DNA from: Tricholomella constricta
Taxonomy: Eukaryota; Basidiomycota; Agaricomycetes; Agaricales; Lyophyllaceae
DNA: 64,000 nt
Direction: 5' to 3'
NCBI GenBank assembly: GCA_013368375.1
Contig: JAACJP010000019.1
Coordinates: 721,020 to 785,019, forward strand
The position numbers and the translations under genes were made by a program. The notes under the pieces were generated by a model that was given only the letters and a program-made list of their open reading frames with translations, ran no database searches and had not been told where the DNA came from. Below are positions 37,794-48,944 of this stretch, piece after piece; the first letter of the stretch is position 1, and the number at the start of each line of letters is the position of its first letter.

Positions 37794-38437
37794 ATGGCAC
37801 ACGGCCAGCCTCCTAAATGTCCCAGACACACTGGAGGACTTTGGAACCAACAAGCCCATGATGTCCGCGACCTCGAGAACCTGTCGAGCGATGATGAGAG
37901 CCCCGATGCCGAGTCCGAAGATGAAGTGACTGATGCCGAGCTCCTTTGGGAAAGAGCAGAGGTGGAAAATGGAGAGCAAATGGTTGATGGGCTGGATTCA
38001 GATGTGGAAGTGGAGGAGGATGAGGGTTGGGAGGATGAGGAGCTCCAGGAAAAACTGGTTGCTGTGGCTGAAATTGAAGGAGATGATCTCAAGGATGAAG
38101 TATGGCTGCCATTCCATCTTAGAAGGAAGAAATTAAAAACAGGTAAAGTACATCACCAGAGGAAGAATACACACTGAAGAAAACACCCAGGATGACCCAA
38201 AGAATATATAAAAGGTCCGGATGTCATGAGCAAGTCTGAGCGCATGAAAAGACGATATCGCAAGTCCACGCGAGGTCAACAATCACTCACAGGGTTCTTC
38301 CAGCCAATTCGGAGGTCGGGATCTCGCTTGCATGCAGGGTCATCGTGCACAGGGCCATCGTGTGCAGGGTCATCGCACACAGGATTGTCCCACACATCAG
38401 CATCGTTGAGTGCGCGCGTCAAAGAGGGCATCGAGAC
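37794..38437 (+). pseudogene. DDE transposase, N-terminal part, split by LTR element
   Basis: ATG at 37794 (MAHGQPPKCPRHTGG), exon to 38142, GT-AG intron 38143-38214, second exon with KSERMKRRYRKSTRG and QSLTGFFQP, a basic region plus the short FF motif seen at the N-terminus of a large Agaricomycete DDE transposase family. The middle of exon 1 is strongly acidic. The frame is cut at 38437 by the LTR (VKEGIET then LTR). Its continuation is the minus-strand piece starting at 44481: with the retroelement and one GAGAC copy set aside, the codons continue in phase (GIET then VHSQNELS). Confidence 0.8.
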
Positions 38438-38658
38438 TGTAAGGGCGCCTACTATCTTATCTAATATCGGTTATCTAATCGTATCTTATTGAGACGATTA
38501 CGCTATTGTTTGGCAACACCTTCTGGTGTTGCCTATTTAATTCATTACATTAAATAAGTATAAACAACCTTGTACACCTATACATAGCAATCGACAGACT
38601 TGTCAAGCTTACGTCTAGCGTGAACAGCAAGGTTCCCAAATTCTGTAACTCCGTTACA
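38438..38658 (+). repeat. 5' LTR (221 bp) of the hairpin-rich retroelement
   Basis: Begins TGTAAGGGCGCC, ends CTCCGTTACA. Preceded by GAGAC (38433-38437), which recurs directly after the other LTR when read on the minus strand (44486 down to 44482). Contains the perfect 9-bp inverted repeat GGCAACACC (38512-38520) / GGTGTTGCC (38525-38533). No standard tRNA primer-binding site is evident just after it; the sequence there is TTTTTTTAAGCTACC. Confidence 0.93.
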
Positions 38659-38813
38659 TTTTTTTAAGCTACCTTGCTTTCTATTGCTGCGTACCCACAA
38701 CGTCACGCAGACCCACATTCCATTTAGAACACCCATCAACAAAAGAACCCACGAGATCCAGACCCGATGACACCAACTCCCACATCCGGAAAGAGCCGAA
38801 CCCCTGTCCTTGA

Positions 38814-41800
38814 GGATGCGCTCACAGTGCTCCATCACAACTCCCACTGCAACCAGTGGAAGTCGGATTAGTCGCTGGTGGACAAAGTCCACCAGTGCAG
38901 AATACACTAGGATTAGAATCGGAGGAATTTTGGCCGACAGCAAGCACCAATGTGCCTGGGAGCTTGGCCGACGAATTGGCCAGGTCACAACGACCTGGCT
39001 CCACGTCTGGAAGCAGATGGCCAGACAGCCATCTATCAAGCAGAGCATTCGGGGCGTCCACCCTGAGCATAGTCAAGATGGAGTCGGACGAAGACGACTT
39101 GTCCGACCCCGAGGCCAATGAAGAAGAAGCCAGTGAAAGGGAATTGCTTGCGCTACAAGTGAAGCAATTCTGGGACACCACCAATGTTTTTAGCGAGCAT
39201 TGACGAAGGCGACTGGAGGAACGAGCGGATAGGCTCGTTCTACGATCAACCGGAGCACAATCCGTTGGAGAAATGGTCGCACAGGATTACACCGACCGAT
39301 ACTTGGAAGCGCTGTCCGTAGTAGTTACGGAATACAGGAAGAAGTACCCTAAGGGAACTTCGAATTCAGCAGTCAGTTCGATCGCTGGGACTCCTGTACC
39401 TAAGAAAGCTCCGCTCAACAAAGGAAAAGATCATTGGGATGACCTTTTCACTCCTCAAGCAGTGGCCTCTGGATCGAATCAGCCTCTTGATGAGGCTGCC
39501 ATGGCAGTATCGGCGCTGCATCAAGCGCGCCAGTTAGGAGAATCTGACGACGATTATCGTCGTCGGGCCGCGGCAGCGAAACACGAAAGAATGACTCGTG
39601 AAGAGCATCTTGCGCAACCACAAGGTTCCCGATGGGCCCCTGTTAGTGAGTCTACATTAGACCCACCCACTGAGCATAAGGACACAAATTCGCAACCAGC
39701 TGGCAACGAAAGTGTGCCAGCTATTCAAGTACCTACGGAGGCTAAGGATGGTCGTGTTCCATTAGCGAAAGAGTGGAACAACCGGATTGCTTACCAGCAT
39801 CTGAGAAAGGCTGATCTATCATGGAGCAAGTTCACGAATTATGACGACCAAGGAGTCGTCTTTGAAGGATATGCCTGTGGATGAGATGGCGAGGCAATGG
39901 GCCTTGCAAACTCAAGGTTCGGATGGTGGGTTGGTAACTGGACCTGGGGCCGTCGGAAAAAATAATCCGACAGCGACAGCTAACGGCCGTCAAGACATGC
40001 GGGTTCGAATAAGTGAACCCGCGGAATATGCGCAGCTGCGAGCTCAGACTCGAGGCTACTCAATGCCTGCTTCGATCCGCAGGAGTCAATCAATTGCGGA
40101 TGGAATACATGCTGCCAGAGAGCAGCATAAAACTAAGATGCATGAGCGATTGCATCAATTAATGCACGAGCGCTTGTCGGTACAACTGTCGCTTCCGGAC
40201 GGGATGAAATCTCGGCGTGCGGACTCAAAGTCCGTAGGCACTTATAGTGGAAGTGCAAAGTTCGGCGACTTAGAAGAATGGCTGTCGAGCCTTGTCGTTA
40301 TGCTGGCGGTGAGCCAGTTTGGAGGAGAAGAACGCGACCAAGAGCGCCTTCTGATAACATCCGAGTTTCTCGATGGCGAAGCTCGAAAGTGGTACAATCG
40401 CCACGTTATACATGTGAACCGTGAGAAGCAGCTCTGGACGTTTGAAGATGTCGTACTTGGGTTGTATGACCGGTTCGTGCTGCCCTCAACCATGCAAGAT
40501 GCTCGTAACGACTTCAATGCCGTTACTTACTCGGTGAGCAAAGGAATACAAGGTTTATATGATGACCTTGTGGACCATGCCATGAATATGGCAGCAAGAA
40601 CGGACGATTGGATGTTCAGAAATTCCTCAAAACACTCCCGCGTGAGATGCGGAAGGCATTATTCGATGACGGGCTATCACCCGAAATCAACACGGCCCGA
40701 GAGTTCCTAGCGGTGGGCTTAGCACACCAAGCCACCCAGAAGACGGCTGATTACTTTGAGCGGAACATAACCGCTCAGCGAACTCAACCGAGTCAAATGC
40801 GGAAACCAGATGGGGGGCAAGTAAACACCCCACAAAACAATTTCAACAGGCCTCGACGTGTGTATGGCGCATTTAATGAAAAGCCATACACCAAGCCAGC
40901 GTATCAGGATCAAGCTGGACGTGGAGAGCAAACGCTCCACGTCGAAAAACCAGCGGTGAAGACGGGAGATCGTCCGCGTTACGATCAAACCAAAAACCAC
41001 AATCATCACAATCACCTTCCGGGTGAAGTGTGCTTTAATTGTGGAAAACTAGGGCATTTCCCAAAAGATTGCAAACAGCCCAAGAAACAGCGAGCGTTCC
41101 TACGGGCCGCACATACAGCGGCACCTGACGCAGCAAGTGAGGCGGACGATGAAGATACGTCTCCCGAGGACCCGGATGGATGAGACAATGGACGCCCTGA
41201 TACAGAGGCGGACAACGAAGACGAAGGCGATGAGTTCGTAGACATGGAGGTCTACGAGAATGAATACTATGCTCGGGACGATGAGACCGAGCGTATGTTT
41301 GCAATGACAGAAGTAATTGCGTCAGAAGAATGCAATGATAAACAACCAGTTCGCAAAGTGAAAGTGCGGATGGGTAGGGACAAGATTGTTTGTCCCGTAG
41401 TTCCGATAAAGGACAAGGAGTGCCTTGTCACCTACATTAACGTAGGTGGACATGAGGCTTGGACCCTCTGGGATTCCGGGAGTACGACTACCGGACTTAC
41501 GACGTCATTCGCTCAAGTGGCCGATATTCGAGTGTTCCCGCTGGAGGATCCATTAATCCTCCAGCTCGGGACTAAAGGAAGTCGGGCCACAGTAAATTTT
41601 GACACGACGGTGGAAGCCGCCCTTCCAGAGTTTAAAGGCAAGGTTTACATGGACCTTGCTAACTTTGATCGATACGACGTGATTATAGGCACGCCGTTTA
41701 TGTGCGCAAATAACATCGTGCTGGACTTTAACCGTGACGAAGTTGTTGTCAATGGAGTCGCTACACCAGCGACTAAAGTAAAAATGGAGGATACCGATGG

Positions 41801-41843
41801 CCGAGCTAGGCGCCATCGATCATTGGAGAAACGAAGAGAATGA
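38814..41843 (+). pseudogene. Ty3-like gag and protease, degenerate
   Basis: Three linked frames. The first runs from 38814 through a TGA at 39201-39203 to about 39860 and includes DRYLEALSVVVTEYRKKYPK and ESDDDYRRRAAAAKHERMTREE. A frameshift near 39860 leads to the capsid core (DLEEWLSSLVVMLAVSQFGG, DGEARKWYNRH, VVLGLYDRFVLPSTMQDAR). A second frameshift near 40610 leads to a CCHC knuckle (CFNCGKLGHFPKDC) at 41031-41073. After a TGA at 41181 comes a retropepsin (ETWTLWDSGSTTTGL-like, here AWTLWDSGSTTTGL) with the flap-end motif DVIIGTPFM. The order gag-CCHC-PR is that of Ty3 elements. Both stops can come from CGA. Nonfunctional as it stands. Confidence 0.85.
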
Positions 41844-42507
41844 CTAAATGTAACAGTAGAAGATGACGAAGATCCTGATAATGAGGGTAGGCCGATAAAC
41901 AGCCTACCGAGGATCACCCAGCACTTCTATTATCCGATGAAGAGTTTCAAGAAACTCTTAAGGAGGGGGATAAGCCACTTCCGAAGAAGAGAAAATCCCA
42001 ACGACGACAGCAGAAGGCACAAAAAGAGCCTTCGAACGAACGAGCACAGACTAACGAGCCATGCGAAGAACGTCAGTGCAATAATTAAGCGCGTAAGACG
42101 AGCGATGCGGACAAGGATACGGAATCAGAACCGTATACGAATGCGAGTAATCGGTTTGGGCGACTTCTGGCGACGGGCCGTGAGATGGACAGCTTCTGGA
42201 TAGACCAAATCCACATCCACAATATGAGTGGATGTTCGACCCACGGATGCTGCACGAGTGGAACACAGTAATAGCGTCAATGTGGGCTCACGAAGGAAGA
42301 AATGTAGGCACGCTAGGACAAGTGTACCGAAATCCACAGCCTGAGGAAGTATCGGAGCCAACAGAAATGAATTTTCCGGTTAATATACAACGGGCTAAAC
42401 AGAAAACACTCTTACTTCAATAAAATTATGACTTTTCAAGGTGGCCAAATCTTTGAGAGAAATTTTCCGAATTCTATGTACCTCTGTGAGGCCTAAGGTA
42501 CCCTCAA

Positions 42508-44481
42508 TCAGTTTAGAACAGCCTCGATAGACATCAATGCCTGCTGAGAGATCTGCTGATGCTGCTTCTGCTTGCGTACAGCCCACGCAGCTGCCTGTCT
42601 CGTGAGACCCATCTGATACGCGCTCATAAATCTCCAAGAACGATTGATAAAATGCCGAATCACGACGTCCGGGCATGCATTAAGGTTCATCTCTGCCAGT
42701 TCCTTCGCCTCCGCGAAGGTCTTCTTGGGGACCTCTCTGTAGCGATATTTGACCCACCCCCAGTACTTGATAAATTACATGAGAATTAGTTTTGAAATTG
42801 ATCCGTTAAAAGAATACGTACCATTTCGATTGGATTCAGTTCACAGTGAAATTTTGGAAGGAAAATACACTCGTGTCCCGCTTCCTTGATCAACATCTCA
42901 AGCTGAGATTTTTGGTGCTTGAAGTCATCCTGTTGGCTAAGAAGGCGAGCCATGCAACAGTTGACACTGTTGGCTGAACACACAGGTGAGCATTTAGCGC
43001 GCAGGTTCCTCACTGAGAAACCGCACTCCTCGAGCACTGCCTGAAGGCCCTTTGGATCACCATTGGGCAGTGTCATCTTCTGTGACTTGCCTCGATACTG
43101 GGGGTCGGGGTTTGTCTGCGGGATCACTGTATCGGTTTGCTTGCGCTGTTTACCACCATTGGACTTGTTCATCTCGAAGGCCTTCAAAGCATCAGGAGGG
43201 AGCGAGGCGTGAGCAGAGGATTGGTCAAAGATGAAGAGTGAGATACAATTGGGATGCTGCTTTTCAAAGACCTTGATGGCATGCTTTACTTGCTCGAGAA
43301 GCTGAGGTGCATCCCACCATGTGTCGCCATGGATCCTGGATATATAATTCTTCGTGCTTCATCTAAAATTCTGCCATCAGGATCACGGTGGACAAGGCGA
43401 CCCGTCTCAGGATTTATAAAATCTGGAACGTGAATAAGGCGGCCACGCCCTTTCTTCTGCAGGATCGTTTGACCTCCTTTAACCTGAGGAAGATGAGATT
43501 GCTGTGTCAGCATCATTTGGGTTGTTGAAAACTGAAATTACTGACCATGCTCATTGCTTGTACTCATTTACTGTGAGGCAAGATTTGTCTTGAAAGTTTG
43601 CGATGACTTCTTTCTCCCCAGGACGCAAGGTTGGCGGGACACGTTTGAGATCAGGGCCCTCATATTTGGCCATACGTGCTTCGAATTTGGCCATTGCTGG
43701 AAGAAAGACGTTCTGATGATACTCGACCACATCTGGCCGCTCATGTCCATCCATGTACACTCCCTTTTGCAGCTCCTTGTGACTCCATCCAAGTCTGATG
43801 AGCCATCGACGAGCGGTCCGTTCACTCAGTGGGCGCTTGAGGGTAATTGCCAAACTCGGGAGCACAATCGAATTCAACGCGTCGCAAAACCGCCTGGGCG
43901 TGACTTCACCTGCAGGCTGGATGTTGAGCCAGTTCCGTGCCTTCATCTTAACACGCTCATCAAGAAGGAGGGTGCGAGCCTTGCGTGCCCCACCACGCTT
44001 CTCACGCGGAAGCTGTTCGAAGACCTGGTAATGGCGGGCGAGAGTGCGCATGCGGCGCGCGAAATGGACTCCTTCTCCTTCATGCCACTGACACGCAATC
44101 TCGTCGCTTGCTGCAATTTGACCCAGACCCTTTAGACGCAGTGTCGCGAAATTTCGGATGACCAAAAGCTGATTGACATGAGAAACCGGTAGAGTTTTCC
44201 CGCCTTTCTTCAAGTCTGACTTGATCTGGTCTCGCAGATCCTTCCAGGGCCGGATCTCCACACCAGCAAGCAAGGTCTCGTCAAGCTCATCCTCCCATGC
44301 ATCCTCGGGGCTCGTCAAGCTGTCATAATCAACGTCTGCTGGTGGGACTGGGACCTCGATACTTTCCATGGGCACGGCATCTGCTGGTGGGATCTGGACC
44401 TCAATGCTCTCTTCCCGGATTCGTACATCATCATCGATCGGGGGAACAATCACCATGCTCAACTCATTCTGACTGTGGACA
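42508..44481 (-). pseudogene. DDE transposase, C-terminal part, inverted relative to its N-terminus
   Basis: Reads from 44481 downward. Blocks in order: HVNQLLVIRNFATLRLKGLG, EGVHFARRMRTLARHYQVFE, RTARRWLIRLGWSHKELQKG, VYMDGHERPDVVEYHQN, KKGRGRLIHVPDFINPETG, FIFDQSSAHASLPPDAL and FLPKFHCELNPIEM, then YWGWVKYRYREV after an intron at about 42770-42825. FDQSSAH and CELNPIE supply the second Asp and the Glu of a Tc1/mariner-like DDE fold. Broken by TGA at 43551-43553 and a one-base loss near 43335 (PGS then shift to GDTWWDAPQLLEQ). The missing N-terminus is at 37794-38437 on the plus strand. Confidence 0.85.
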
Positions 44482-44486
44482 GTCTC

Positions 44487-44707
44487 TGTAACGGAGTTAC
44501 AGAATTTGGGAACCTTGCTGTTCACGCTAGACGTAAGCTTGACAAGTCTGTCGATTGCTACGTATAGGTGTACAAGGTTGTTTATACTTATTTAATGTAA
44601 TGAATTAAATAGGCAACACCAGAAGGTGTTGCCAAACAATAGCGTAATCGTCTCAATAAGATACGATTAGATAACCGATATTAGATAAGATAGTAGGTGC
44701 CCTTACA
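44487..44707 (-). repeat. 3' LTR (221 bp) of the hairpin-rich retroelement
   Basis: Same length and ends as 38438-38658 but inverted. Read on the minus strand it is preceded by the purine tract AAAGAGGGG plus TA, the expected polypurine primer for plus-strand synthesis, and followed by GAGAC (44486-44482) and the transposase codons. This makes it the 3' LTR of the element whose 5' LTR is at 38438. Confidence 0.92.
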
Positions 44708-45063
44708 TACCCCTCTTTAAGATCGTGTGTAGCGATCTTCACCAGGGAGTTGGGCAGGAAAAGAGAATAAAAGGAGGGTCTAGGTCCCGGCGACCTAGAC
44801 CTATCAAATAATGCAAGAATACGTAGGTATGATACGTATTCTCGACTTAACGACAAGTGGATGCATTAGCTCCACTGCATGGCCTCAAAATGCCGTGCGA
44901 CGATGAGTGGTGGTGAGGACATCCACTGTTACGTTTATACGCAACCTGTGGAGTGCTCCTCGGGAGTCAGGTGGTCTGCACCTGACAATGGCGGTCACCC
45001 TGACGGTACACCCTATGTGTCGAGGTCGGTTCGTTGATGGGGGGGTTAGGTTGTCTCCCCGAC
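44708..45063 (-). promoter_or_regulatory. Polypurine tract and hairpin cluster between unknown ORF and 3' LTR
   Basis: The polypurine tract lies at 44708-44720 (AAAGAGGGG on the minus strand). Perfect inverted repeats: 44719-44725/44733-44739 (7 bp, loop 7), 44777-44786/44792-44801 (10 bp, loop 5), 44818-44825/44833-44840 (8 bp, loop 7), 44966-44973/44979-44986 (8 bp, loop 5). Confidence 0.75.
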
Positions 45064-47811
45064 CTATGACTCCATCACTGTGTCGGGGTTGGTGGTGTTG
45101 TTGTCCACCGGACCCTGGCTGGTGGTAATCAACGCCAGTGATAAAGGCCCTGTAAGGGCCGACACGGGGTCCACTTGGGTTTCGGTAGCTCCAGTTGGAG
45201 CTGCCACGACTGTGGAAGGTGTCGCGGGGGCAGGTATAGCTGCCGACGGGTCCGCCATTTCGACGTTGATGGACGTTGATCCCGATGAAGCTGGGTGGTG
45301 CAGGCCTGGGGGAGATATTCCCCCACCCGAACACGGAGTCCTCGGAAGTGTGGGTCTTCACCCACAAACATCCATTCCGAGCTCACTAGACAGTCTAGTG
45401 ATTCGGTCTGGAATTCCACGTGTATCAGCGTTTGGATGCGTGTGATGTCATCGGTGGTAGGATGGTACCACCCATCCCACTCAGGAATGGCGGGCGGGAC
45501 GCCCATTTCATCTAGGCGACAAACTCGATCGTCGTCAACATTGCGGAACAGGTCCTTATAGGGACCTGAGTTAGAATAGTTATGGTCTAAATAATGTAGA
45601 CCATAAGTGTAGCTATGATGTATCCAGCTTACTGGAATACCAATATTGATAAGGTGTTGCAAGACACCTTGTTCAGTGATCCGCACCTCCGGAGGGATTA
45701 CCTGGATGCGAGGTATGGTAACCTCAGGGCCTTCGATCGGTGTGAAAGGCCGATCTGGATTGGCCTCGTTATGGGCAGCCACAGCCTCTGAGTAGAGGTA
45801 TGGCCGCGCGGTAATGGTTGTTAATAGTCGCATGAACCATGACCGCATGCTGTGGGTAGTTGGCACAAGTACATTCACCAACAAGTATCCCCAAGTTCTG
45901 CGCCTATGTACGCGGAACCGGTAATCCATGACGATTCCTCCGTATTGGTTCTTTGAACCAATACGCTCATGGTGAATCATGTGTCGGCACCAGTGCTCGA
46001 CATCGAGGGCATGGTCGGGGCCTGGCTGAGGAAGGCCAGCGCCTTGTGTAGGCTTGTCCGGCCTATATTCGAAGGCCTTCCCAGGCCGCCTAATTGGTGC
46101 GGCCTGCCAAATGGGTGACCGTGTATCGAACGGTCAGTCGACGCTTCTAAATTCATCCATGGCAGCTCGAGCCATGGATCGGTCGCGCAAATGGGGCGCT
46201 ACCGATAGGGATACTCGACGGAACTCCCTGAAGAGCATAAAGGCCTCTGCCCACTCTTCATCAGTCACACCGGGGCGCCGATGGTTGATCAGTGCATACA
46301 ACTGATCAACTTCACGAGGGTTCATTGGGAACCCGCGTGGTGCGATGGCATATAGCCGTCCTGATGGGGGACGAGAATTGTGTCCCGTCCCCAACTCGCT
46401 TTCGGATACTCGAGCTGCGGTGCCTAGTGCATAGGCACGATTCTGGGCGGACAATACATACATCGTCCGCACTAACATATCCCAAAAGCGGTTGTCCCTC
46501 TCGTGGCGGTCGTTGATGAAGACCACCCCGAGCTCGTCAGGGATCCGCCCCGGCATCTCCTTCTCAGCTTTGCGAGCCATATTCTCGCGATGCTGCTTTT
46601 GCCCGGCAGCCTTCTTCTTGCTGACAGGCTTGTCGTTGTCGGACGACTCGCCCCAGTCCGATTCATCCATAGCCTCGGCATATGGATCCGAGGCCCTCTG
46701 TTTGCCTTTGGATGGCGGCGTTGGGGGCTGCACCATCGTACTAGGTGGTGCAGGGGCTGGCGCTGGCAACATATATTTGCCAACAGGTTCCTTCTTCTGA
46801 GAACCTCGTTCTGGGTTCCGCACCCGGCTTTCTCCCGGGGGCGGTAACGCTCCGGATAAGTTTTGCAGCTTTGTTTCTGCTGACGTCGACGATGTCGACG
46901 CCGTGCGCTCGATTTCTCGAGCAGGTAAGGGACGCACTTCGCACGTCCCTTGATTTTCGCGGCGCTCTTCCCGTTGAGAACCATAATCAAGTGGGCGTTC
47001 ATCACGCCACACTTCCTGGTCAGGGTGGTGGTTGTACCGCTGATTCTCCTGTTCCAGGCGTCGTTCCGGACGCCTGGGCTCCCTCCTCTCTTGTCGTCGC
47101 GGCTCGTAAGAGGTGCATTCTTCTCGACACACCTCCGTTTGCTGCCTTTTTATGGGTCGGGACAATGGTCCCTCCCCGCGATCCGGTGACGTTACTGCCG
47201 GCCAGGCTGAGTTGCTCAGCCATGGCCGCTTCTCTTGCTTTCACACATCTCAAATCCGCGCGAGCTCCATTGTATGCATCAAGCAGCTGGGTTATGACCA
47301 GCTGTGCCATTCCATCGTCCAAAAAATCACAAAGTTCGCGGTGAATACCCGCGTCTTCCAATCGGTCCAAGAGAGAAGAAAGGAGACCATCGTCTGCAAA
47401 TGGTCTCCTCAAACTTGAAGCAGGCGATACTCTGCGATCGTCTGCCATCCTCCGCGAACTCGACGCAGACGATGCTTTGTCGTCTGCATTCAGTGCGACG
47501 TGTTGCCGCAATGGTTCACCGCGCACCACTTGCGCCGGCAGAACATTTGCTTGCAGACGACTTTAGTCGTCTACCTCCATCTTCTCCGACTCGTTGTACC
47601 GCGTATTGTGCGGTACAGGCTGCATGGGCATTTGGGGGTACCACGTCGGTTGCGGGTACCCCATGAAACTTGCCATTGATGGCATCTGTTGGAATGCCAG
47701 TCTTGGCGGATAAAAACCACCCATAGGTGGTTGTTGCCCTTGGTGGTGCGGTTGGCTCATATGGCCAACCGTCGGGAATGATTGTTGCCCCTGGTGGGGC
47801 AGTTGGCTCAT
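45064..47811 (-). pseudogene. Unrecognised long ORF of the hairpin-rich retroelement
   Basis: Starts MSQLPHQGQQSFPTVGHM at 47811, Gln/Pro/Met-rich. A TAA at 47563-47565 follows MEVDD, then the same frame continues with VVRGEPLRQHVAL and a helical stretch (LLSSLLDRLEDAGIHRELCDF, LITQLLDAYNGARADLRC). A frameshift near 47140 leads to an Arg/Glu-rich region, an acidic/Ser linker, then a folded-looking domain: DRHERDNRFWDMLVRTMYVL, LYALINHRRPGVTDEEWAEA, HRRRTWGYLLVNVLVPTTHS, YGLHYLDHNYS, LIHVEFQTESLDCLVSSEW. It ends in a Pro/Ala/Thr tail at 45064. I recognise no catalytic motif. Its place just before the 3' LTR is where some LTR elements carry an extra ORF. Similar proteins may exist in other mushrooms; the function is unknown. 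Confidence 0.55.
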
Positions 47812-47890
47812 GTGGCCAACCGGAGGATATTGGTATAATTGCAGGGCAGGGCACTACAATGTAATGTGACCAACGCTCTAGCGGGCTCAC

Positions 47891-48082
47891 ACAGTGTACC
47901 GTAATTGACGCATTGAGCGGGTCCTCTGTGCCATAGCGGACGCATTTACAGTGTGCTGTTGTTAACGGAGCAGCGGACCCAATACACTGTAGGGTAGGTT
48001 ACGACCGCGGCGGGCTCGGTACACCACCCAGAGAGCCCTCATGGTCAAACCATTACCGCCGCGGCCGGCTTTTCTTCTGAAT
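47891..48082. other. Junction between the rearranged retroelement and the KDZ region
   Basis: Contains ACAGTGT/ACACTGTA motifs (47895, 47950, 47982), possible ends of an element. The right inversion breakpoint should lie near here. No gene. Confidence 0.3.
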
Positions 48083-48610
48083 CCGTGTACTCCGGGTCGA
48101 GATTGGATATCCGGATTAGCATCCGGGCAGGGCATACCTGGCCTCTATATCAATCCGTGCATTCGGTACTTTGCTCTGGGTCCATTACTATCGCGGCCTG
48201 CCTTACTTCCGGATCCGTGTACTCCGGGTCGAGATTGGATATCCGGATTAGCATCTGGGCAGGGCATACCTGGCCTCTATATCAATCCGTGCATTCGGTA
48301 CTTTGCTCTGGGTCCATTACTATCGCGGCCTGCCTTACTTCCGGATCCGTGTACTCCGGGTCGAGATTGGATATCCGGATTAGCATCCGGGCAGGGCATA
48401 CCTGGCCTCTATATCAATCCGTGCATTCGGTACTTTGCTCTGGGTCCATTACTATCGCGGCCTGCCTTACTTCCGGATCCGTGTACTCCGGGTCGAGATT
48501 GGATATCCGGATTAGCATCCGGGCAGGGCATATCTGGCCTCTATCCGTTCAATCTGTGCACCCATACCGGCACACATGAGTTGACATTGAATATCTGGAA
48601 CAGCATTCAG
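48083..48610 (+). repeat. Minisatellite: four 132-bp units
   Basis: Units begin CCGTGTACTCCGGGTCGAGA at 48083, 48215, 48347 and 48479, a constant period of 132 bp. The last is truncated near 48545 and followed by degenerate pieces (ACCCATACCGGCACACA at about 48560 and 48647). Copies differ by very few bases, e.g. CATCCGGGC versus CATCTGGGC. Because 132 is a multiple of 3 and no stop occurs, the array keeps two frames open, which is not evidence of a protein. Confidence 0.93.
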
Positions 48611-48944
48611 GCAGTACATACTTCTGTATATCAATCCGTCTGTGCACTCATACCGGCACACAGGGAGGGGGGTTCAGTATTGTTCCAGAATTGGGAAATC
48701 CGGATCCGGACTCCAGCAGCGGAATGTGACCCGCAATTCACGTATACTTGAGGTAACGCAGTTAACCTCTCATTGTGGATCTGCACACTTTCAGGCAGCA
48801 TTATTTATTTTGTAAATCTAATGTCACACACACTCCAGTGGAGATTGATTGTGATAGGATAGTTTCAAGTTAATATCACGGTGCATAGATACAGCAATCA
48901 ATATTTTCAGGATAGTAATGACACTTTTCCTTCTCTAGATCATC
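48611..48944. other. Non-coding stretch between minisatellite and SDFDF gene
   Basis: AT-richer, no ORF of note. It would be the 3' flank of the minus-strand SDFDF ORF. Confidence 0.35.

What the first reader, a model, noticed from the sequence alone, without database searches (positions are those of the whole stretch)
38438..47890. Retroelement coding sequence saturated with short perfect inverted repeats
Both parts of one LTR element (38.4-42.4 kb and 44.7-47.9 kb) contain a perfect hairpin about every 100-150 bp, inside reading frames as well as in the LTR. Examples (stem/stem, loop): 38875-38883/38887-38895 (9 bp, 3); 39219-39226/39233-39240 (8, 6); 39999-40006/40015-40022 (8, 8); 41940-41948/41951-41959 (9, 2); 45581-45589/45597-45605 (9, 7); 45941-45951/45955-45965 (11, 3); 46155-46163/46171-46179 (9, 7); 46284-46293/46301-46310 (10, 7); 46927-46934/46944-46951 (8, 9); 47381-47390/47400-47409 (10, 9); 47465-47472/47480-47487 (8, 7); 47595-47602/47610-47617 (8, 7); 47749-47756/47764-47771 (8, 7). 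I counted about 50 stems of 6 bp or more by eye. The neighbouring KDZ, hAT, LINE and other Ty3 elements do not show this. Perfect stems despite coding constraint suggest selection for RNA/DNA structure, or a mutational process (template switching that perfects quasi-palindromes) acting on this family.
Basis: partly seen in the sequence, partly recalled or inferred. Interest (0 to 1): 0.88.

Follow-up and report, generated by a model that had tools for sequence, protein, structure and literature searches.

The report
Fungal retrotransposon saturated with perfect hairpins
A jumping element of a mushroom-type fungus carries a short, perfectly self-complementary hairpin about every hundred bases through its genes, apparently kept by natural selection while the element is copying itself; the feature is real and strong, and its purpose is still unknown.

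Summary
All 13 listed stems are perfect. The two parts hold 29 and 36 stems of >=7 bp (loop 3-12) against 1.8 each in shuffles; the rest of the window is near background. Codon-preserving shuffles of gag-PR, pol and ORF3 from other copies give about 2 where 30, 28 and 35 are seen. The window copy is a broken member of an ~11 kb Ty3 family; 29 of 29 other copies read share the feature. Two families at 58% and 72% pol identity show it strongly and weakly, mostly at other positions; 8 loci of distant Ty3 families do not. Stem arms change 1.2-6 times less than other third codon positions between clades, loops mostly do not, and private mutations hit arms at the neutral rate: selection in the transposing lineage. 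Fixed changes show no G-U preference and compensation is rare at unconstrained pairs, so neither sense-RNA wobble structure nor template switching fits well. Best reading: a GORS-like, largely strand-symmetric hairpin array under selection; its function (probably keeping single strands self-folded) is inferred.

The parts
38433..38437 (+). target-site duplication GAGAC, 5' side
38438..38658 (+). 5' LTR (221 bp); holds hairpins 38476-38500, 38512-38533, 38534-38556
   Evidence: inverted partner 44487-44707; 2 differences of 221; stems
38438..42400 (+). part A of the element: 5' LTR, leader, gag-protease region (frames broken in this copy), start of pol; hairpin array of 29 stems >=7 bp
44487..44707 (-). 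3' LTR of the same element, inverted relative to the 5' part
44482..44486 (-). target-site duplication GAGAC, 3' side (inverted)
44487..47841 (-). part B of the element: most of ORF3 (about 1000 aa in open-frame copies, frames broken here), 3' untranslated region and 3' LTR; hairpin array of 36 stems >=7 bp counted over 44487-47990
38875..38895 (+). hairpin 9 bp, loop 3
39141..39170 (+). hairpin 9 bp, loop 12
39219..39240 (+). hairpin 8 bp, loop 6
39999..40022 (+). hairpin 8 bp, loop 8
40918..40943 (+). hairpin 9 bp, loop 8
41540..41565 (+). hairpin 10 bp, loop 6
41940..41959 (+). hairpin 9 bp, loop 2
44777..44801 (-). hairpin 10 bp, loop 5
44816..44842 (-). hairpin 10 bp, loop 7
45580..45606 (-). 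hairpin 10 bp, loop 7
45941..45965 (-). hairpin 11 bp, loop 3
46155..46179 (-). hairpin 9 bp, loop 7
46284..46310 (-). hairpin 10 bp, loop 7
46927..46951 (-). hairpin 8 bp, loop 9
47054..47077 (-). hairpin 9 bp, loop 6
47381..47409 (-). hairpin 10 bp, loop 9
47465..47487 (-). hairpin 8 bp, loop 7
47595..47617 (-). hairpin 8 bp, loop 7
47749..47771 (-). hairpin 8 bp, loop 7

Best explanation
An ~11 kb Ty3-type LTR retrotransposon family (LTR, gag-protease, pol, a third ORF of about 1000 aa, LTR) carries an element-wide array of short perfect hairpins (6-12 bp, loop mostly up to 12, one of >=7 bp per about 100 bases). SHOWN: the array is far denser than codon-preserving shuffles, is family-wide, occurs in two more distant families mostly at other positions, and its paired arms are conserved between clades but hit at the neutral rate by mutations private to one copy. 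SHOWN: among changes fixed between clades all mismatch types are about equally disfavoured, with no preference for G-U. INFERRED: selection favours local self-complementarity as such, wherever it can be built from synonymous choices, not particular hairpins. INFERRED and less sure: the benefit lies in a single-stranded phase in which both strands count (genomic RNA and minus-strand cDNA, or sense and antisense transcripts); keeping these strands folded on themselves would limit hybridisation with antisense or small RNAs (RNA silencing), or compact the nucleic acid in the particle.
For: Density: 30, 28, 35 stems >=7 bp against 2.05, 2.23, 2.36 in 300 codon shuffles each of gag-PR, pol, ORF3; non-coding 915 bp, both LTRs counted, 10 against 0.4. 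Family-wide: 29 of 29 other copies hold 26-38 stems in part A. Constraint: third positions of part A, clade I vs II, arms 5/174, loops 9/69, other 163/955; vs III 26/174, 24/69, 310/955. Interior arm sites of part A, I vs II, 5/416 against 287/3447, p=1.5e-9, while private mutations in all 30 copies read are 54/11224 in interior arms and 438/98465 elsewhere, p=0.55. No wobble preference: interior single changes obs/exp 0.38 G-U, 0.35 A-C, 0.35 transversion. Compensated pairs 11 against 2.31 permuted, maximum 9 in 2000. Protein not sacrificed. Folding: z -14 to -16 against codon shuffles, two Ty3 controls about -1; MFED 25.5 and 27.7%.
Against: One-sided, pair-breaking changes far outnumber compensated ones (464 against 68 over all directed clade comparisons, which count some changes repeatedly). 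Compensation at freely changing pairs is rare. In one search non-compensating double changes are also doubled (5 against 2.50), so part of the excess comes from regions that evolve at different rates. The second pol piece shows hardly any arm constraint between I and II (third positions 9/65 against 74/436) and its loops change least (1/27). Terminal pairs of long stems are not constrained (34/512=0.066 against background 0.046). In clade I the within-clade singletons are fewer in arms (10/555 against 107/3136). MFED is somewhat higher in sense than antisense for I, III and V, opposite for IV, so strand symmetry is not complete. The single-genome G-U/A-C comparison is noisy: for family I it gave 9.0 and 7.9-fold but 5.9 and 9.8-fold. 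Family V has only 6 stems >=7 in pol against 1.6. Nothing measured here bears directly on silencing, packaging or cDNA.
Confidence: 0.6

Rival explanations
1. Mutational process: during reverse transcription the nascent strand folds back and copies itself, perfecting quasi-palindromes; the hairpins are a by-product without function.
For: Fixed changes show no wobble preference, as copying would give. New pairs next to stems arise at 35 of 638 (0.055) against 0.0247 for random mismatched pairs, while terminal pairs of long stems are lost at or above the background rate. Loops are short, falling off above 12 in clade I, less sharply in II and IV.
Against: Arm-to-arm copying should give many compensated changes where both sides are free, but 3 of 208 (3-3 pairs) and 1 of 249 (non-coding pairs) pair-by-lineage cells are compensated, with single changes about halved. 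Overwriting would change the protein at one arm; over all of pol arm codons are as conserved as others against 80 homologues. Eight loci of other Ty3 families in the same genome have no excess.
Confidence: 0.12
2. Sense-RNA hairpins recognised by Gag, dispersed packaging or assembly signals as in RNA phages.
For: Array runs through the whole genomic RNA; loops are A- and T-rich relative to other codon-matched sites; sense MFED a little above antisense in I, III and V; in some single-genome counts G-U is slightly ahead of A-C (families I and II, III).
Against: No G-U tolerance in fixed changes. MS2 and Qbeta show a G-U lead with the same stem counter, from few stems (8 and 10 observed). Hairpin arms of L039 show little common sequence (nearest-neighbour similarity 0.79 against 0.76 for random segments). 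Positions are mostly not shared with families IV and V. Family IV has higher antisense than sense MFED.
Confidence: 0.18
3. Paired sites are simply protected from mutation during the replication cycle (damage or copying errors hit unpaired bases), so structure accumulates passively without benefit.
For: Arm changes are reduced by a similar factor at synonymous, non-synonymous and non-coding pairs and for all mismatch types; loops change slightly more than non-stem sites (0.246 against 0.204).
Against: Protection does not explain the elevated gain of pairs or compensated pairs above permutation, nor why 8 loci of other Ty3 families lack the feature.
Confidence: 0.1
4. Chance, base composition or codon usage.
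For: None found.
Against: 0 of 100 dinucleotide shuffles of each part (highest 7 and 6) and 0 of 300 codon shuffles of each ORF (highest 9, 8 and 6) come near the observed counts.
Confidence: 0.01

Closest known systems
[quoted passage not shown]
   Same: Structure distributed over the whole genome, many consecutive local stem-loops, pairings that differ between relatives while overall folding is kept; PMC7642675 (passages seen, part of the abstract among them) gives MFED 7.5-10.7% for HCV, about 15% for SARS-CoV-2 and 23.4% as the highest recorded vertebrate RNA virus value.
   Different: Here a retrotransposon with a DNA phase; MFED 25.5 and 27.7% in family I by a similar but not identical procedure; pairing is carried by perfect contiguous Watson-Crick stems, fixed changes show no wobble preference, and the antisense strand folds nearly as strongly; most pairs are kept among clades I-III.
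Hairpin-rich RNA phage genomes (MS2, Qbeta)
   Same: Excess of perfect local stems (MS2 7 against 1.87, Qbeta 16 against 2.43 of >=7 bp).
   Different: Excess is 3.7- and 6.6-fold there, 21-fold here (105 against 4.9); the phages' stems with one odd pair favour G-U over A-C (small numbers), this element's do not consistently.
Yeast Ty3 genomic RNA structure (SHAPE-MaP study PMC11381356; eight passages seen)
   Same: Same superfamily; the paper reports stable structured regions making up to 30% of Ty1 and Ty3 genomic RNA.
   Different: In the eight passages that I saw no saturation with perfect hairpins is described.
Template-switch perfection of quasi-palindromes (recalled; search listing only)
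   Same: Would yield perfect short inverted repeats with short loops.
   Different: Expected compensated changes at free pairs and protein changes at one arm are not seen.

Membership tests
Ty3/Metaviridae LTR retrotransposon, chromovirus-like | PR, RT, RNase H, integrase in Ty3 order between LTRs | tested here: met
   RVP_2 in ORF 41184-41843, 24.1 bits over cut-off 20.3; RVT_1 2e-27, RT_RNaseH 8e-27, Integrase_H2C2 9e-18, rve 6e-9 in L039 pol; LTRs and 5-bp target duplication
Ty3/Metaviridae LTR retrotransposon, chromovirus-like | C-terminal chromodomain | tested here: inconclusive
   PF00385 E=0.00093, 19.5 bits, below the cut-off of 25.1
GORS | Folding energy well above shuffled controls throughout the genome | tested here: met
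   mean MFED 25.5% (21 fragments) and 27.7% (39 fragments), sense; three Ty3 controls 1.2-1.7%
GORS | Pairings not conserved between relatives although folding is | tested here: inconclusive
   Largely so between I and IV or V (14 of 352 and 22 of 363 mapped pairs shared); not so among I-III, where most pairs are kept
GORS | Genome of a positive-strand RNA virus | tested here: not met
   Integrated LTR retrotransposon
GORS | Association with evasion of host RNA recognition | not testable with these tools
   needs experiment
RNA-phage-like packaging signals | Sense-RNA helices tolerate G-U | tested here: not met
   fixed interior changes: G-U 0.38, A-C 0.35, transversion 0.35 of expectation; single-genome counts are noisy
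RNA-phage-like packaging signals | Hairpins bind the coat or Gag protein | not testable with these tools
   needs binding data
Template-switch quasi-palindrome perfection | Compensated change at pairs free of coding constraint | tested here: not met
   3 of 208 and 1 of 249 pair-by-lineage cells
Template-switch quasi-palindrome perfection | Clustered multi-base change of one arm in new copies | not tested
   no series of new insertions was available
Known Rfam RNA family | Match over a gathering score | tested here: not met
   0 matches in 38400-48000

The most novel reading that the evidence does not exclude
A lineage of fungal Ty3 retrotransposons has evolved an element-wide, Watson-Crick hairpin array selected in a phase in which both strands matter (cDNA, or sense plus antisense transcripts), i.e. 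a structural code overlaid on all genes that keeps its single strands from pairing with anything else, for example as a passive shield against RNA silencing. The ten paper searches that I made listed no such system for retroelements.
Probability: 0.35. Interest if true: 0.9.

Novelty: new variant of a known kind. Interest (0 to 1): 0.8.

Why it matters
Genome-scale structure is known from RNA viruses. Here it appears, by a similar measure at higher strength than the highest vertebrate virus value quoted in PMC7642675, in an element that also has a DNA phase and has left dozens of copies in one genome. That allows a test RNA viruses do not offer: changes made in the transposing lineage can be compared with neutral decay after insertion, and pairing rules can show whether RNA or DNA is the selected molecule. 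Families with and without the array live in the same host, so its link to silencing, copy number or packaging is directly testable.

Tried and rejected
Chance and codon usage: rejected. A dispersed hairpin cassette: arms of the hairpins of L039 are hardly more alike than random segments (0.79 against 0.76; 6 against 2 arms with a near-identical partner). Regular spacing: gaps are more even than random in part A of I and II (p about 0.01-0.02), not in their pol-ORF3 part nor in III and IV, so no claim. Sense-strand bias of folding: not consistent. A broad property of fungal Ty3: a 37%-identical relative (L050, from a lichen MAG) shows a mild excess over dinucleotide shuffles (8 against 3.1) but none over codon shuffles of its longest frame (2 against 1.35). 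Relatives in viral contigs: none confirmed; genome contigs: only L050. ORF3 has no Pfam match at E 0.1 and no PDB match at E 1; two homologues, both Lyophyllum, were found in a search that scored only the candidates sharing most words. Structure prediction of ORF3 could not be queued. Literature: 10 searches listed no paper on such arrays in retroelements; I saw passages of PMC7642675 and PMC11381356 and the abstract of PMC3950689, otherwise listings only, so absence from print rests on these searches and this library alone.

Limits of my own analysis: the 30 best of the 41 matches were fetched for part A; part B was compared in 9 copies and pol in one copy per clade; clade III rests on one element. 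L001-L008 are eight loci but few families. The inferred ancestor is a two-of-three vote, so clade III changes and changes on the I/II stem are not told apart; one search repeats the key counts with changes in I and II only. One search used 11 chosen copies; one search repeats it with all 30. L029 alone gave 214 of the 442 private differences; leaving it out gives 36/10862 in arms against 246/95308.
Full report
WHAT IS THERE. Window 38438-42400 (+) and 44487-47841 (-) are the 5' and 3' parts of one copy of a Ty3-type LTR retrotransposon. Both LTRs (221 bp) differ at 2 positions and are flanked by GAGAC, so the 3' part seems to have been inverted after insertion (inference); most of pol is missing, and transposase-like remnants (DDE_3 and HTH_33, both below their cut-offs) lie between. 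Copies with open frames elsewhere show LTR, gag-protease, pol (RT, RNase H, integrase, weak chromodomain), then a third open frame of 997 codons and the 3' LTR. In L034 and L036 gag-PR ends in TGA followed by CTA, with pol continuing in frame.

THE HAIRPINS ARE REAL. All 13 examples are exact. Part A has 29 and part B 36 stems of >=7 bp with loops 3-12 against shuffle means of 1.78 and 1.84; the highest single shuffles gave 7 and 6 (100 shuffles each). Non-coding sequence (5' LTR and leader, 3' region and 3' LTR, so the LTR counts twice) has 10 in 915 bp against 0.4. In clade I the excess starts at 5 bp (1.45-fold) and then grows about threefold per added pair (4.7, 14, 37 and 160-fold at exactly 6-9 bp; the shuffle expectation at 9 bp is only 0.1); stems of 2-4 bp are not in excess in I-III; in clade I loops above 12 fall to near background, in II and IV there is a small tail to about 18.

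FAMILY-WIDE AND BEYOND. One search lists 41 matches to part A at 38 places; the 30 best were read (one is the window copy). The 29 others hold 26-38 stems of >=7 bp, the window copy 29. Most fall into clades I and II (about 92% identity in part A, 84% in part B), with clade III (one element, L045/L046) at 80-89%. A search with a Phanerochaete homologue found two further families: IV (L048, 58% pol identity) with 26 stems in 4.5 kb against 2.1 and 19 in pol against 2.15 codon-shuffled; V (L049, 72%) with 10 against 2.15 and 6 in pol against 1.6. Eight loci of distant Ty3 families (32-40% identity in the seven measured) have 0 or 1. Stem positions are mostly not shared: 14 of 352 mapped pairs between I and IV and 22 of 363 between I and V at stems >=6 bp, against shift controls with means 0.68 and 0.60 and maxima 10 and 11. 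The saturated state is thus held by a lineage while individual hairpins turn over.

SELECTION, NOT MUTATION IN THE HOST. In part A third codon positions differ between clades I and II at 5/174 in arms, 9/69 in loops and 163/955 elsewhere; against III at 26/174, 24/69 and 310/955. The same holds more weakly elsewhere (I to II, third positions): first pol piece arms 7/92, loops 7/40, other 78/535; part B 35/197, 33/78, 203/712; the second pol piece shows little (9/65, 1/27, 74/436). Interior arm sites of part A differ at 5/416 against 287/3447. Mutations private to one copy, presumably mostly post-insertion, hit interior arms at 54/11224 and other sites at 438/98465 over all 30 copies. The constraint therefore acts in the lineage that transposes. 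Interior pairs are constrained, outermost pairs are not (0.213 against 0.204 for non-stem sites). Over the whole of pol, arm codons are as conserved in protein as other codons against 80 homologues (0.578 and 0.603 against 0.587); in the RT part they are a little lower (0.635 and 0.599 against 0.677) and in the integrase part a little higher (0.680 and 0.702 against 0.614), within about 1.5 standard errors. So hairpins are built from synonymous choices; accordingly the pairing phase with least synonymous freedom (1-2, 3-3) is under-used, 23 of 93 stems against 34-44% in the codon-shuffled ORFs.

PAIRING RULES. If sense RNA helices were selected, changes to G-U should be tolerated more than changes to A-C. 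Among changes between clades they are not: 57 observed of 118.5 expected for G-U, 68 of 128.6 for A-C, 67 of 137.1 for transversions; at interior pairs 0.38, 0.35, 0.35 of expectation. Counting stems of >=8 with one non-Watson-Crick pair in single genomes is noisier: family I exceeds shuffles 9.0-fold for G-U and 7.9 for A-C (15 shuffles), 5.9 and 9.8 (30 shuffles); III gives 8.6 and 6.1, IV 6.6 and 9.5, V 1.0 and 1.7; Qbeta gives 7.1 and 2.9 (10 and 4 stems), MS2 6.3 and 3.3 (8 and 5 stems). The phages thus lean to G-U and the element families do not consistently. Folding excess is strong on both strands: z -14 to -16 sense and -12 to -15 antisense in I; MFED sense/antisense 25.5/21.1% and 27.7/23.3% in I, 23.4/20.3 in III, 22.6/26.3 in IV, 18.4/12.2 in V, three Ty3 controls 1.2-1.7/2.8-4.1. 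My MFED uses 350-base fragments as in PMC7642675 but other steps and shuffling, so the comparison with its viral values is approximate.

AGAINST THE COPYING EXPLANATION. Perfect pairing without wobble is what a foldback copying process would leave. But unbiased arm-to-arm copying would turn arm mutations into compensated pairs wherever coding does not forbid it. At 3-3 pairs 3 of 208 pair-by-lineage cells are compensated and 24 single changes stand against 47.8 expected; at non-coding pairs 1 of 249 and 15 against 36.7. Overall 11 compensated pairs exceed a permutation mean of 2.31, but other double changes are also doubled (5 against 2.50), so regional rate differences make this test generous. 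Against my own reading, new pairs next to stems arise at 35 of 638 (0.055) against 0.0247 for random mismatched pairs, while terminal pairs of stems of >=8 bp are lost at 0.066 against 0.046; this imbalance could reflect positive selection on gains or a mutational contribution, and I cannot separate them.

HOW IT MOST LIKELY WORKS. Shown: a dense array of local self-complementarity, constrained in the transposing lineage and strong on both strands. Inferred: what counts is that any single-stranded form of the element folds on itself at short range. A function that needs both strands explains the missing wobble tolerance: a G-U pair in one strand is an A-C mismatch in the other. Genomic RNA plus cDNA, or sense plus antisense transcripts, are the candidates. 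Shielding from hybridisation and hence from RNA silencing is the function I consider most likely (about one in three), by analogy with the report that structured viral transcripts escape host RNA sensors (PMC3950689, abstract seen); packaging or compaction is next.

STATUS. The element is an ordinary Ty3 retrotransposon by its enzymes. The array resembles GORS and is best filed as working like it, not as a member: it is not an RNA virus and most of its pairings are kept among clades I-III. The ten paper searches that I made listed no report of such an array in retroelements.

Noticed in passing
window 38433-38437, 44482-44486: Same 5-bp target duplication beside two inverted LTRs: one element whose 3' part seems inverted, with transposase-like remnants (42786-44591, - strand) between.
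   Followed up: partly
window 38438-42400 versus 44487-47841: Part A is closer to clade II (93.8% to L016, 91.8% to L034) and part B to clade I (92.7% to L039, 80.4% to L047): the window copy looks like a mosaic of the two clades.
   Followed up: no
L034 4908-4913, L036, L016: gag-PR and pol are separated by one in-frame TGA (followed by CTA in L034 and L036), a context recalled as favouring stop-codon readthrough.
   Followed up: partly
L039 3582-6572; window part B: Third ORF of about 1000 aa after integrase without Pfam or PDB match; only two homologues found, both in Lyophyllum, one of them annotated as a tannase/feruloyl esterase with PF07519.
   Followed up: partly
window 47993-48751: Translation shows tandem repeats of about 44 codons next to the element.
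   Followed up: no
L044 (C70:22200-29500): A clade II 3' part lies directly downstream of a clade I copy, suggesting nested or tandem insertion.
   Followed up: no
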